Source: a virus
Strand: one strand, 5' to 3'
DNA length: 30,783 nt
IMG/VR virus record: IMGVR_UViG_3300030118_002983
Location: 1 to 30,783 of that record
Shown here: positions 2,513 to 7,354 of the stretch, one piece after another
How the letters are laid out: each line of letters opens with the position of its first letter
How positions within the stretch are numbered: the stretch's first letter is position 1
Position numbers and translations under genes: made by a program
Notes under the pieces: generated by a model
The model's database searches: none
Told to the model about the DNA's origin: nothing
Seen by the model: the letters and a program-made list of their open reading frames with translations, nothing else

Positions 2513-3085
2513 TTGAACATCCCAAACGAGATTCGGGCTGGCGACACCATTAAGTGGAGGGATGATCCTTCTACTGATGTTTTCGGCAATGACATCAAAA
2601 GTGACGAGTGGACACTCAAGTATTACTTGAGGTTCAACAAGGCAAGCGAGGCGCACACATCCACCGGGACAGCTTTCAATACGGGCTGGGAGTTCACGAT
2701 TTCTGCGACTGATAGTGCAGATTTCGACTCTGGCACTTGGTATTGGCAGGCTGTTGCCACCAAAGGGTCTGAGACGTTAACTCTTGGATACGGCAACCTT
2801 GAGGTAGAGGACAACCTCGCTTTTACCGGAAGCGCCAGTGCTTACGACGGAAGATCGCAAATCAAGCAGGATCTTGAGGCGATCCAGACCGCTATACGCA
2901 CCTTGGTTGCTGGCGGAGCAGTCCAGGAATACAAGATTGGCAACAGAAATCTCAAAAGATACGACTTGCCTGACTTAATCCAGCTTGAAGCCCGTTACAA
3001 GGCTGAGCTCAAAAGAGAAGAGCAGGCCGAACTTATTGCCAACGGCCTTGGCAATCCCCGCAACATGTTCGTGAGGTTCAAGTAA
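2513..3085 (+). CDS. Head-tail joining protein: beta domain plus gpW-like C-terminus
   Basis: A 190-residue protein between the large terminase and portal, the place of gpW in lambda. The first ~105 residues look like a beta-sandwich (alternating hydrophobics, GTWYWQAVATKG, YGNLEVEDN). From about residue 112 comes a gpW-like segment: helix (IKQDLEAIQTAIRTL), beta hairpin (EYKIGNRNLKRY), second helix (DLPDLIQLEARYKAEL) and a short aromatic/basic tail. gpW itself is only about 68 residues and closes the portal pore after packaging, so this looks like gpW with an added N-terminal domain. The start is TTG at 2513, four bases after the terminase stop; no in-frame ATG exists before the beta domain. 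Function is inferred from position and the C-terminal pattern. Confidence 0.65.
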   Translation: MNIPNEIRAGDTIKWRDDPSTDVFGNDIKSDEWTLKYYLRFNKASEAHTSTGTAFNTGWEFTISATDSADFDSGTWYWQAVATKGSETLTLGYGNLEVEDNLAFTGSASAYDGRSQIKQDLEAIQTAIRTLVAGGAVQEYKIGNRNLKRYDLPDLIQLEARYKAELKREEQAELIANGLGNPRNMFVRFK

Positions 3086-3087
3086 TC

Positions 3088-4626
3088 ATGGGTATTCGGA
3101 CTCGCCTCATGGGCTTCTTGGGCTTTGGCAATCCAAAGCCAATGCGTCGTGCATATAACGGCGCGATTGTTTCTCGTTTGACTTCTGACTGGATGACAAG
3201 CCAGTCAAGCGCTGACGCAGAGATTAAAGGCAATTTGCGCCGCTTGCGTGATCGTTCCCGCGAGATGGTGCGGAACAATCCATACGCAAGGCAGGCAAAG
3301 CGAACTACACAGATCAACGTTGTCGGGAGTGGGATAAAGCTTCAGTCACAGGTGTTGCAGCTGCGCGGCAACAAGCGAGACAACAGAATCAATCAAGCGA
3401 TTGAGTCGAAGTGGCGAGAGTGGTCACAAGCAGATAGCTGCGACTGTGCGGGCAAGAATAATTTTCAAGAGTTTGAGTGGCTTGCGGCTGGCGCGATGTG
3501 CGAGTCCGGCGAGGCGATTTTCAGGGTCGTAAGGCGTGCTTTTGGTGACTCAAAGATTCCAATTGCACTGCAGATGCTTGAAAGCGATCTGCTGGATGAG
3601 GATTACAGCGGTCCCAAGCTGAATGCAGCAAATGAATGGAGAAATGGCGTTGAGGTCAACGAATGGGGACGCCCTGTTCGTTACGCCATTCTCACGAGGC
3701 ATCCTGGAGATAATTTTGTTGGTGGGCATCCTTCAGCAAGCGTAAAACACCTGTTTTTGCCTGCAGAGGACATCATCCATTTGTTTATGCCTGAGCGCCC
3801 TGGCCAGAACAGAGGCGTGCCTTGGTTCCACAGCGTGATGGCTGATGTACATCAGCTTCAGGGCTACGAAGAAGCTGCAGTGATTCGCGCTCGTGCTGGT
3901 GCGAGCATCATGGGCTTCATCACCAACAACGAAGGCGAGCTTATTGGTGATGACGTAGAGAACAGTCAAAGAATCAGTGAGTTTGAGCCTGGCACTTTCA
4001 AGTATTTGAGCCCTGGCGAGTCTGTCTCTGTTCCCGACATCGACTCACCGGACCAGCAGTTTGAGATGTTCGTCAAGAACAAGATTCGCAGGTTCGCTTC
4101 AGGCTTTGGTTGCTCATACGAGACCTTGTCTCGTGACTTCAGCGACACGAATTACAGCAGTAGCAGGCTGAGCCTGCTTGAGGATCGCGAGCATTGGAGA
4201 GTCGTACAGAAGTATCTGATTGACAGTCTCCATAAGCGCGTTTTCAAGGAATGGCTAAATCTGGCTGTTTTGTCTGGTGAGCTTGCATTTGCCGATTATG
4301 AGCTTCGTCCTGAGAGGTACAACAAAGCCAAATGGATGCCTAGAGGTTGGAGCTGGGTTGACCCGCTCAAGGAGGTCAAAGCTTTCCGCGAAGCAGAGCA
4401 AGCTGGATACCTAAGCAAGGCTGATGTCATCTCGTCTTACTCCGGCGGGGACTATGACGAGACCATCAGCGCTTTGGCAAGGGAGCAACAGTTTGCTGCT
4501 GATGCAGGCATCCAGTTGGACAAGGATTTGGATTTGACTGACGAGGGCACACAGCTTGAGTTGCTTGAATCACCACAGACTCAGCCCACTCGCAAACGGA
4601 GTAATGGCAAACGTAAACGGAGTTGA
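3088..4626 (+). CDS. Portal protein, lambda family
   Basis: A 512-residue protein expected to form the dodecameric ring at the capsid vertex through which DNA enters and leaves. Its N-terminal part (RDRSREMVRNNPYARQAKRT, then NVVGSGIKLQSQ) is typical of lambda gpB-like portals. The central region carries family landmarks such as GRPVRYAIL, a HLF/MPERPGQNRGVPW segment and ARAGASIMGFI. The helical C-terminal half includes DFSDTNYSSSRLSLLEDRE. Length agrees with lambda gpB (533). It starts two bases after the gpW-like gene, and its 3' end overlaps the protease-capsid gene, a common arrangement when the minor capsid protease follows. The C-terminus is basic (RKRSNGKRKRS). Family assignment is confident. 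Confidence 0.93.
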   Translation: MGIRTRLMGFLGFGNPKPMRRAYNGAIVSRLTSDWMTSQSSADAEIKGNLRRLRDRSREMVRNNPYARQAKRTTQINVVGSGIKLQSQVLQLRGNKRDNRINQAIESKWREWSQADSCDCAGKNNFQEFEWLAAGAMCESGEAIFRVVRRAFGDSKIPIALQMLESDLLDEDYSGPKLNAANEWRNGVEVNEWGRPVRYAILTRHPGDNFVGGHPSASVKHLFLPAEDIIHLFMPERPGQNRGVPWFHSVMADVHQLQGYEEAAVIRARAGASIMGFITNNEGELIGDDVENSQRISEFEPGTFKYLSPGESVSVPDIDSPDQQFEMFVKNKIRRFASGFGCSYETLSRDFSDTNYSSSRLSLLEDREHWRVVQKYLIDSLHKRVFKEWLNLAVLSGELAFADYELRPERYNKAKWMPRGWSWVDPLKEVKAFREAEQAGYLSKADVISSYSGGDYDETISALAREQQFAADAGIQLDKDLDLTDEGTQLELLESPQTQPTRKRSNGKRKRS

Positions 4627-7354
4627 GATTGACCTTATGCCGACAGAAGGCATGAGGGAAGAGGCTCAGCGTTATCGCGATTGGAAGTCTGAGGGCGAGG
4701 GCGGCGGCACCGATGTTGCACGCACCAGGGCAACTCAGATATTGAGCGGCAATGAGCTGAGCCCAGACACTGTCATCACAATGTCAGCCTGGTTTGCGAG
4801 ACATCAGGTAGACAAAAAGGCGAAAGGTTTTAGGCCAGGAGAAGAGGGGTATCCCAGCAATGGACGAGTTGCATGGGCCGCATGGGGAGGTGATGCAGGC
4901 AAATCTTGGTCTGATGCGCGGTCAAAACGAATCAAAGCCGCTCAAGAGCGCTCCGAAGTCATAGAAATGGAGCGTCCATATCCCAACGAACATGCTGCAA
5001 GGATTGCAAGTCCAAGCAAATTTGATCGATTTAGGCGCTCTAACGACCGTGGAGGCGCTGGAGTCGACTTTATTTTTGGCGTGATCGATGAGGATGATCG
5101 TAGTGAGTTGCAGTCGATAAGATTCAAGGTGAGTCGTTATACGGCTAGTGAAGCTAGACAATGGCTTCGCGATAATGAATACGAACCTCTTGAGTTCGAG
5201 CCCGCCACCAACGAAAAGGCTATGGAACCTGAAACTCAACGAGCAGCCCCAGACGCTCTAAAAGTGGGAGATTTTGTCTCCTGGAATAGCTCTGGTGGCC
5301 GTGCTCGTGGATTGATTGAGCGTGTGGAACGCGATGGCACCATCGATGTCCCTGACTCAAGCTTCACCATCACTGGAACTGCTGATGATCCAGCAGCTCT
5401 GATCTGTCTCTATCGCGACGGCGAAAAGACTGACACTCGTGTCGGACACAAATTCAGCACGTTGACGAAGATTGCGCCGATCAGGGAGGCAGAGGTTGAG
5501 GAGACCTCTAAGCGCACCAAACTTGGAGAGCCTCTTAGCCGCACTGAGGCTTCTGTTATCAGAAGTCTTCCTGGGGAGGATCGCAGCTTTGAGTTCCCGT
5601 TCAGCTCTGAGTATCCCGTCAAAAGATACTTCGGTGACGAAGTATTGAGCCACGAGGCCGGTGCGCCGGACTTCATGCGCTTGAACGATGGTGCGCCATT
5701 CCTGTTCAACCACGATCCGAACAAAGTTTTAGGTGTGGTTGAGCGTGCGTACCTGGACGAGGAAGAAAAGCGTGCTTACGCAAAAATCCGCTTTTCGCGC
5801 TCTGATTTTGCCAAGCAGTACTTAGATGACGTTAGAGACGGCATTTTGCGCGGCATTTCCTTCGGCTATCAAATTGATGATGCTGAGGAGAAAGAAGAAG
5901 GACTGCTTGCAACACGTTGGTCGGTGCATGAATTGAGCCTTGTTTCGATTCCAGCTGACCCCACAATTGGAATCGGACGATCACTTCTTTCGCCAGATCC
6001 TGCCATGCCTGAATCTTCTCAACCTGAAGCTACTACTATTACGAATGAAGCTCCTGTTGAAGAACAGGAAACTCGCTCAGCGGTCACGACCGCATCTACA
6101 CCCACTCCTGTTATGGAAGATCAAGCTCCAAACCTGGAGGTGATCCGGTCGGAGGCTAAGAAGGCCGAAAAAGACCGTGTTGCCGCTATCAGCGCCCTCG
6201 GTGCTCAGCACCGCATGGCAGACCTGGCACAAGAATTGATCGATGGAGATAACTCCATTGATGAGGCTCGTGCTGCAATCCTCGAAAAAATCGGAACCTC
6301 TCAAGTGGAACAGCCTATCCGTTCTACCGATGTCACATCTAATGACCTCGGTCTTTCCAAGCAGGAGACCAAGCGCTTCAGCTTCCTCCGCGCTCTCAAC
6401 TATCTAGCCAGCCCTGGCGATGCAAACGCACGCCGCGAAGCTGAGTTTGAAATTGAAGTTGGCATCGAGGCTGCTAAGAAGTACGACCGTTCTTCAAACG
6501 GCATCGTGGTTCCCAACGAGGTGCTGCGCCGCGACTTGACTGTCGGCACTGCAACTGCTGGCGGCAACCTTGTTGATGATGTTCTGCTTTCCGGCAGCTT
6601 CATTGACCTGCTGCGCAACAAGCTTGCACTGGCTGGTGCAGGCATGACAACCCTGAGCGGGATCAACGGCAACATTTCAATTCCCAAGCAGTCGGCAAGC
6701 GCTACCGCTTACTGGGTTGGGGAGTCAGGCTCACCTACCGAGTCACAGCAGACCATCGAGCAGGTGAACCTTTCACCCAAGACTTGTGGTGCTTTCGTCG
6801 ACTACTCACGCAAGCTGTTGCTGCAGTCCAGCATCGACGTTGAGCAGATGGTCCGTGACGACCTGGCTCAAGTCCTGGCTCTTGAGCTGGATCGTGTTGG
6901 ACTGAATGGCTCTGGTTCTTCTAACCAGCCCTTGGGAATCATCAACACCACCGGCATCGGCACCCAGTCTCTGAGCACATTCGGAACCTTCGCCGAGTAC
7001 ATCGGGATGGAGACCGATGTTGCTACTGCTAATGCTGATGCTGGCGCTCTGCGTTACATCATCAACGCAGCCGCTCGCGGCGCTCTGAAGAGCACCGAGA
7101 AGGCAAGTGGCACAGCTCAGTTCGTTTACGAAAACGACGAGATCAACGGCTACCCCGTAACCGTCTCCAACCAGCTCGAAAATAACGATGCTCTGTTTGG
7201 CGATTTCTCACAGCTGATCATGGCGATGTGGTCCGGCTTGGATCTCACCGTTGATCCGTTCGCTGGCGCTACTTCCGGCACTGTTCGCATCATTGCTCTG
7301 CAAGATGTTGACTTCGCCGTCAAGCAGCCTGGTGCATTCTGCTACGCCACCTGA
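4604..7354 (+). CDS. Fused prohead protease - scaffold - major capsid protein, with accessory N-terminal modules
   Basis: One uninterrupted 916-residue ORF. Modules, numbered from ATG 4604: (1) ~1-105, a phage accessory domain with FARHQVDKKAKGF and VAWAAWGGDAGKSW; (2) ~135-205, a small alpha/beta module (DFIFGVIDEDDRSELQSIRF, EARQWLRDNEYEP); (3) ~220-291, an HVA1/DUF2945-like SH3-type module (KVGDFVSWNSSGGRARG); (4) ~330-460, an HK97-type U35 prohead protease with candidate His370 (FNHDPNKVLG) and Ser419 (GISFGYQ); (5) ~465-580, a Pro/Glu/Ala-rich helical scaffold/delta-like linker; (6) ~582-916, an HK97-fold capsid protein (GGNLVDDVLLSG, AYWVGESG, LDRVGLNGSGS). The capsid protein must be released by processing, or made from an internal start; ATGs at 6005 and 6112 lie in the linker but lack a good Shine-Dalgarno. 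An upstream in-frame ATG at 4556 exists; 4604 is preferred because comparable proteins begin near the IDLMPTEGM stretch. Confidence 0.88.
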   Translation: MANVNGVEIDLMPTEGMREEAQRYRDWKSEGEGGGTDVARTRATQILSGNELSPDTVITMSAWFARHQVDKKAKGFRPGEEGYPSNGRVAWAAWGGDAGKSWSDARSKRIKAAQERSEVIEMERPYPNEHAARIASPSKFDRFRRSNDRGGAGVDFIFGVIDEDDRSELQSIRFKVSRYTASEARQWLRDNEYEPLEFEPATNEKAMEPETQRAAPDALKVGDFVSWNSSGGRARGLIERVERDGTIDVPDSSFTITGTADDPAALICLYRDGEKTDTRVGHKFSTLTKIAPIREAEVEETSKRTKLGEPLSRTEASVIRSLPGEDRSFEFPFSSEYPVKRYFGDEVLSHEAGAPDFMRLNDGAPFLFNHDPNKVLGVVERAYLDEEEKRAYAKIRFSRSDFAKQYLDDVRDGILRGISFGYQIDDAEEKEEGLLATRWSVHELSLVSIPADPTIGIGRSLLSPDPAMPESSQPEATTITNEAPVEEQETRSAVTTASTPTPVMEDQAPNLEVIRSEAKKAEKDRVAAISALGAQHRMADLAQELIDGDNSIDEARAAILEKIGTSQVEQPIRSTDVTSNDLGLSKQETKRFSFLRALNYLASPGDANARREAEFEIEVGIEAAKKYDRSSNGIVVPNEVLRRDLTVGTATAGGNLVDDVLLSGSFIDLLRNKLALAGAGMTTLSGINGNISIPKQSASATAYWVGESGSPTESQQTIEQVNLSPKTCGAFVDYSRKLLLQSSIDVEQMVRDDLAQVLALELDRVGLNGSGSSNQPLGIINTTGIGTQSLSTFGTFAEYIGMETDVATANADAGALRYIINAAARGALKSTEKASGTAQFVYENDEINGYPVTVSNQLENNDALFGDFSQLIMAMWSGLDLTVDPFAGATSGTVRIIALQDVDFAVKQPGAFCYAT

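What the first reader, a model, noticed from the sequence alone, without database searches (positions are those of the whole stretch)
4604..7354. Six-module polyprotein: accessory domains, prohead protease, scaffold linker and major capsid protein in one ORF
Protease and HK97-fold capsid protein are usually separate genes or use nested starts. Here an uninterrupted 916-residue frame joins them through a delta-like linker and adds three small modules in front (WGG-type, DFIFGV-type, HVA1-like). With 1:1 synthesis, each capsid subunit would come with one protease unless an internal start (ATG 6005 or 6112) is used. This raises the question of how hundreds of protease modules are accommodated or removed during maturation.
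Basis: partly seen in the sequence, partly recalled or inferred. Interest (0 to 1): 0.7.

Follow-up and report, generated by a model that had tools for sequence, protein, structure and literature searches.

The report
Phage capsid polyprotein with nested start
One phage gene fuses small add-on modules, the capsid-cutting protease, a scaffold and the shell protein, and comparison with hundreds of relatives shows that the phage very probably also starts translation in the middle of the gene, making many shell subunits that carry no protease.

Summary
In detail: 4604-7354 is one uninterrupted 916-codon frame holding three small modules (W, D, Hva1/TUDOR-like H), an S78 prohead protease with an invariant His370/Ser419/Glu443, a helical scaffold and an HK97-fold coat. 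No sequencing error is needed: more than 200 related loci keep the fusion. The protease-scaffold-coat fusion itself is a known, published kind (phrog_617; NF045541-like; Microbacterium cluster EE; roseophage R4C). The N-terminal modules are optional plug-ins, gained, lost, duplicated and reordered between relatives.

The puzzle of one protease per coat subunit most likely does not exist. The start codon is kept in all 182 non-redundant loci of three clades (ATG, or GTG four times). It carries a strong Shine-Dalgarno in 56/57 roseophage-type loci. It lies in the least structured mRNA of the frame and in the region of strongest synonymous-site constraint in all three clades. It would give a 43.9-kDa scaffold-coat product without protease. 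In the window's own clade the start has no Shine-Dalgarno and sits in a conserved RNA/DNA element of unknown mechanism. All of this is comparative; no protein or ribosome data were available.

The parts
4604..7354 (+). full-length polyprotein ORF (916 aa, 99.9 kDa)
   Evidence: same single frame in >200 relatives
4631..4939 (+). W module (WGG-type, residues 10-112), phrog_2859-like, helical
   Evidence: also found in separate proteases, portals and standalone proteins of other phages
4955..5218 (+). D module (DFIFGV-type, residues 118-205)
   Evidence: absent from many relatives
5240..5479 (+). H module (Hva1/TUDOR-like beta barrel, residues 213-292)
   Evidence: duplicated, absent or moved before D in relatives
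5561..5980 (+). prohead serine protease domain (S78), invariant His370 (5711), Ser419 (5858), Glu443 (5930)
5981..6130 (+). disordered linker between protease and scaffold (residues 460-509, pLDDT about 30)
5990..6163 (+). conserved cis element: strongest synonymous-site constraint of the protease-scaffold-coat part (observed/expected 0.15-0.3; z -12.5 at 6071-6112)
   Evidence: no overlapping ORF open in all relatives
6053..6068 (+). possible RNA hairpin CCTGTT-GAAG-AACAGG
   Evidence: no covariation support
6080..6093 (+). possible RNA hairpin GCGGT-CACG-ACCGC; flanks invariant in 26 relatives
6005..6007 (+). ATG codon 468, optional second internal start; has AAGGAG upstream in several relatives, Shine-Dalgarno lost in the window, ATG lost in others
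6113..7354 (+). proposed nested product: scaffold + coat without protease (codons 504-916, 43.9 kDa), start ATG 6113
6136..6146 (+). GGAGGTGATCC, perfect complement of the conserved 16S rRNA 3' tail, 23 nt downstream of ATG 6113; present in 55 of 64 relatives; only such 11-mer in the window
6131..6481 (+). helical scaffold / delta-like domain (residues about 510-626)
6245..6328 (+). second stretch of reduced synonymous variation (observed/expected about 0.4-0.6)
6560..7351 (+). HK97-fold coat (residues 653-916, 27.7 kDa)

Best explanation
The gene is a nested two-product capsid gene. Translation from ATG 4604 gives the long polyprotein (modules + protease + scaffold + coat). Translation from ATG 6113, in the linker between protease and scaffold, gives the abundant HK97-gp5-like scaffold-coat subunit. 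Both co-assemble through their shared scaffold-coat part, so a minority of long chains carries the protease and the add-on modules into the prohead, joined to the shell. The protease then cuts at the end of the scaffold (near residues ~630-653), which releases the scaffold, protease and modules inside the head. The N-terminal modules are interchangeable passengers whose only shared requirement is delivery into the prohead interior. Shown here: architecture, module turnover, conserved start codon, Shine-Dalgarno in sister clades, low mRNA structure and synonymous constraint. Inferred: actual initiation, product ratio, cleavage site, passenger role.
For: (1) The linker start codon is kept in every one of 182 non-redundant loci: roseophage clade 57/57 ATG; S-CBS clade 57 ATG + 4 GTG of 61; window clade 64/64 ATG, in two neighbouring alignment columns, and 77/77 in the larger set. 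The four ATG-to-GTG changes are on separate edges of the similarity tree, whereas GTG makes up only 9 of 311 replacements at other Met-rich columns. (2) In the roseophage clade 56/57 have Shine-Dalgarno pairing of -5 kcal/mol or better there, against 5% of 832 other in-frame ATGs. In 46 genome-derived fusions 29 have an ATG with Shine-Dalgarno in the 40 codons after the protease, against 13% of control stretches. (3) Synonymous variation reaches its minimum beside this codon in all three clades (z -12.5, -10.3, -7.4). (4) mRNA at -30..+20 is far less structured than at other in-frame ATGs (-5.4 against -13.6; -3.9 against -14.4 kcal/mol); in the window 6113 is the least structured of 14. (5) The codon sits in the disordered linker just before the first scaffold helix. 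(6) The residues after it look like protein starts (MSDP, MTEE, MSEE, MTDK). (7) With full-length chains only, the pre-coat part would fill about 62-107% of an HK97-sized prohead, against 14-25% for the short product (inner radius assumed).
Against: No ribosome profiling, mass spectrometry or mutants. In the window and S-CBS clades the start has no Shine-Dalgarno; pairing there is weaker than at random ATGs. About half of the window's other predicted starts also lack one. The constrained region is longer than a start site needs and holds a downstream anti-16S complement and possible hairpins that this model does not explain. Some genome-derived fusions show no Shine-Dalgarno start in the linker. 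Clade counts are not fully independent observations.
Confidence: 0.82

Rival explanations
1. Single-product polyprotein: every coat subunit is made as the full 916-residue chain, and all 415 protease and module copies are packed into the prohead and cleaved out.
For: The frame is intact everywhere; some fusions with an obvious linker ATG lack a Shine-Dalgarno.
Against: Invariant start codon with start-only substitution, Shine-Dalgarno in 56/57 roseophage-type loci and synonymous constraint would have no reason. The volume estimate makes a full house implausible for long variants.
Confidence: 0.08
2. The constrained region is chiefly a transcriptional or RNA-processing element (internal promoter or cleavage site) that gives a separate scaffold-coat mRNA; the short protein is then made from that mRNA.
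For: Constraint runs about 120 nt upstream of the ATG, with possible hairpins; the window clade lacks a Shine-Dalgarno.
Against: The roseophage clade has an ordinary Shine-Dalgarno start without the window clade's element; no promoter motif was identified. It also still ends in the nested product.
Confidence: 0.25
3. The synonymous constraint reflects a programmed ribosomal pause or structured RNA (GGAGGTGATCC after the linker) that lets the protease fold before the coat is made, not internal initiation.
For: GGAGGTGATCC in 55/64 window relatives, with synonymous sites fixed.
Against: Does not explain the start-codon conservation, nor the Shine-Dalgarno upstream of the ATG in sister clades.
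Confidence: 0.12
4. Sequencing or assembly artefact joining separate genes.
For: One relative, CRP-823, is split by one T in a homopolymer.
Against: More than 200 independent contigs and several isolates (S-CBS1, S-CBS3, CRP-811, CRP-821, R4C) have the uninterrupted frame.
Confidence: 0.01

Closest known systems
Protease-scaffold-coat fusions: phrog_617, NCBIfam NF045541 (prohead protease/major capsid protein fusion), roseophage vB_DshS-R4C gp6, VP882/phiHAP-1/ep3-type phages, Microbacterium cluster EE (PMC7302621, PMC9670927)
   Same: One gene encodes protease, scaffold and HK97-fold coat in this order, right after the portal gene
   Different: The window form adds W, D and H modules in front; the publications examined do not mention an internal start
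Synechococcus phages S-CBS1 and S-CBS3
   Same: Same fusion with the W and D modules, about 49% identity, same gene order
   Different: No H module; annotated only as 'major capsid protein'
Roseophages CRP-811/821/406 (PMC12629253)
   Same: W plus variable modules fused in front; linker start with strong Shine-Dalgarno
   Different: Divergent scaffold and coat; extra small modules
Lambda C/Nu3 (own knowledge)
   Same: In-frame internal start makes a product lacking the protease
   Different: Nu3 is scaffold only and lambda coat E is a separate gene; here the nested product includes the coat; lambda C is an unrelated protease fold
HK97 gp4/gp5 (own knowledge; folds 8fqk, 3qpr)
   Same: S78-type protease, delta-like scaffold fused to coat, T=7-type shell
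   Different: HK97 protease and coat are separate genes and there are no add-on modules

Membership tests
Protease-scaffold-coat fusion (phrog_617-type) | S78 prohead protease domain with conserved His/Ser and acidic residue | tested here: met
   Peptidase_S78 hit; His370, Ser419, Glu443 invariant in 29-31 diverse relatives
Protease-scaffold-coat fusion (phrog_617-type) | HK97-fold coat in the same frame | tested here: met
   best fold match 8gta (E 3.9e-21); HK97 prohead I Z 18.6, rmsd 3.9, 244 aligned
NCBIfam NF045541 | whole-protein score above curated cut-off (525 bits) | tested here: not met
   173.5 bits over 325-600 only: a relative, not a member of that model
Hva1_TUDOR (PF11160), H module | score above gathering cut-off (24.1) | tested here: inconclusive
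   window 22.0; H modules of relatives score 25.0-27.5
Nested-gene arrangement (works like lambda C/Nu3) | conserved in-frame internal start codon before the scaffold | tested here: met
Nested-gene arrangement (works like lambda C/Nu3) | Shine-Dalgarno at the internal start | tested here: not met
   absent at window 6113 and in the S-CBS clade; present in 56/57 roseophage-type loci
Nested-gene arrangement (works like lambda C/Nu3) | two protein products observed | not testable with these tools
   needs protein or ribosome data
HK97 gp4/gp5 type | separate protease and coat genes | tested here: not met
   single frame

The most novel reading that the evidence does not exclude
In the cyanophage-like clade the internal start is driven by a dedicated cis element rather than a normal Shine-Dalgarno: an unstructured pyrimidine-rich leader at the ATG flanked by possible hairpins, plus a perfect 11-nt complement of the 16S rRNA tail placed 23 nt downstream of the start. 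It would be a bacterial internal ribosome entry element inside a coding frame that sets the protease-to-coat ratio.
Probability: 0.22. Interest if true: 0.78.

Novelty: new variant of a known kind. Interest (0 to 1): 0.55.

Why it matters
It resolves how protease-coat fusions avoid one protease per shell subunit, and it predicts the same nested start in hundreds of phages that databases annotate with a single product. It also shows the front of a capsid polyprotein acting as a fast-changing dock for small modules that would be carried into the head, a natural cargo-loading design. The conserved element around a start without Shine-Dalgarno makes SD-independent internal initiation in phage mRNA directly testable.

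Tried and rejected
Overlapping ORF as cause of the constraint: no other frame is open in all relatives. Sequencing error: rejected by >200 intact relatives. Conserved RNA structure: folding against synonymous shuffles gave mean z -3.2 near +60 in the window clade, but the window itself is not outstanding and the paired columns hardly vary, so there is no covariation support (a first, larger run timed out). PDB fold search of the N-terminal modules gave no match below E 0.001 (the viral library shows related proteases and portals). R4C as query in viral contigs found nothing. Paper searches found no description of an internal start in these fusions; subscription papers are not held. A PHROGs call failed on a wrong frame and was repeated.

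Full report
Observation. The frame 4604-7354 is open for 916 codons. Pfam, PHROGs and NCBIfam place an S78 prohead protease, a scaffold and an HK97-type coat in it, plus a phrog_2859-like module at 10-112 and an Hva1/TUDOR-like module at 222-267. AlphaFold2 of the core gives a confident protease, a disordered linker (about 460-509), scaffold helices (about 511-626) and a coat whose best structural match is the roseophage R4C coat 8gta; HK97 prohead I aligns with Z 18.6, rmsd 3.9 over 244 residues. His370, Ser419 and Glu443 are invariant in 29 diverse relatives, as expected of an active S78 protease. The catalytic assignment itself is from general knowledge of the family.

Relatives. S-CBS1 and S-CBS3 carry the same fusion with W and D modules; roseophages CRP-811/821/406 carry W and other modules; S-LBS1, R4C and RcRhea carry the core alone. 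Viral contigs and genome contigs gave more than 250 further loci. The core order protease-scaffold-coat is constant while the front changes: W-D-H, W-H, W-H-H, W-D-H-H, W-D, W-H-D, W alone, or nothing; some forms add a HiPIP-like Cys cluster or a DUF5824 module. The same modules occur in separate proteases (phiPsal1, DSL-LC01), a portal (HATV-3), and small standalone proteins (PaBG, 150E35-1), and in many predicted phage structures. They are therefore mobile plug-ins. That they are passengers into the head is inference from their being joined to prohead-interior parts.

Known status. The fusion is a known kind. phrog_617 matches across 315-915 and NF045541 is a named protease/capsid fusion model, although the window stays under that model's cut-off. 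Jacobs-Sera et al. 2020 call the protease-scaffold-capsid fusion a common feature of siphoviruses with uncommonly small genomes (PMC7302621; also PMC9670927). A text search of PMC7302621 for 'internal' gave no hits. The R4C paper reports a T=7 shell of 415 copies of the gene product and does not use the word protease (PMC10276861). The R4C coat chain in the PDB starts at residue 362 of 629, equivalent to window residue 653, so cleavage is expected at or somewhat before that point.

The internal start. Between protease and scaffold every clade keeps a start codon. In the roseophage clade it is ATG in 57/57 non-redundant loci; in the S-CBS clade ATG in 57 and GTG in 4; in the window clade ATG in all 64, in two neighbouring alignment columns because of a linker length difference. 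The four GTG cases lie on separate edges of the similarity tree, while GTG is 9 of 311 replacements at other Met-rich columns. The roseophage clade has a strong Shine-Dalgarno there in 56/57, against 5% at other in-frame ATGs; genome-derived fusions show 29/46 against 13% in control stretches. In the window clade the start at 6113 has no Shine-Dalgarno, but neither do many other predicted starts in the window. The mRNA there is the least structured of the frame's 14 ATGs. Synonymous variation falls to 15-30% of expectation beside this codon, the minimum of the analysed part in all three clades. No overlapping frame explains this. ATG 6005 is a second, optional candidate: several relatives have AAGGAG before it, the window has lost that Shine-Dalgarno, others have lost the ATG.

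Consequence. The short product (504-916, 43.9 kDa) has a 149-residue scaffold part and a 264-residue coat, like HK97 gp5 in design. A rough volume budget with an HK97-like prohead (inner radius 20-24 nm, assumed; 0.133 nm3 per residue) gives 62-107% filling if all 415 chains were full length, 14-25% with short chains only, and 21-37% with short chains plus 60 long ones. The long chain is thus best seen as a minority product that delivers protease and modules. The ratio is not known.

Unexplained. The window clade's element contains GGAGGTGATCC, a perfect complement of the conserved 16S rRNA 3' tail, 23 nt downstream of the ATG, in 55/64 relatives, and near-invariant GCGG...CCGC flanks upstream. 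Upstream hairpins are predicted but not supported by covariation. A second stretch of low synonymous variation at 6245-6328 is also unexplained.

Limits. The evidence is comparative. Loci within a clade are related, so counts overstate independence. The minimum-spanning-tree counting of synonymous changes is approximate. Shine-Dalgarno scores use a generic anti-SD sequence and the host of the window is not known.

Noticed in passing
window 6136-6146: Perfect 11-nt complement of the 16S rRNA 3' tail (GGAGGTGATCC) inside the coding frame, fixed at synonymous sites in 55/64 relatives, with no start codon at normal spacing downstream.
   Followed up: partly
window 6245-6328: Second stretch of reduced synonymous variation within the scaffold coding region; cause unknown.
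   Followed up: no
L006 (CRP-823), 2980-3696 and 3656-5908: Only split case: one extra T in a T-run breaks the frame in the D module of a cultured roseophage; sequencing error or a natural test of independent downstream translation.
   Followed up: partly
L079, L083, L232 upstream of the protease: Extra HiPIP-like module with conserved cysteines (CSNCxFYxGPRACE...CKFW) fused in front of the capsid polyprotein.
   Followed up: partly
L116, L124, L140 upstream of the protease: Extra module (RGVGAYKTNP...SGKHDTDLLP), DUF5824-like in L116, in front of the protease in roseophage-type relatives.
   Followed up: partly
L300 and L305 (Prochlorococcus AG-388-A01, contig QCGK01000002.1): Two different protease-coat fusion genes lie within about 7 kb on one Prochlorococcus single-cell contig; possibly a satellite or prophage remnant.
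   Followed up: no
window, predicted gene starts (e.g. 7382, 8762, 9904, 20601, 28842): Roughly half of the predicted genes lack a Shine-Dalgarno, suggesting a host or phage that often starts translation without one.
   Followed up: partly
L257, L258, L260, L261, L263, L264 linkers: VP882/ep3/Mica-type fusions have their own linker Met, mostly about 36 codons before the scaffold helix (MKVKILR-like) and mostly with a moderate Shine-Dalgarno, suggesting a similar nested start there.
   Followed up: partly
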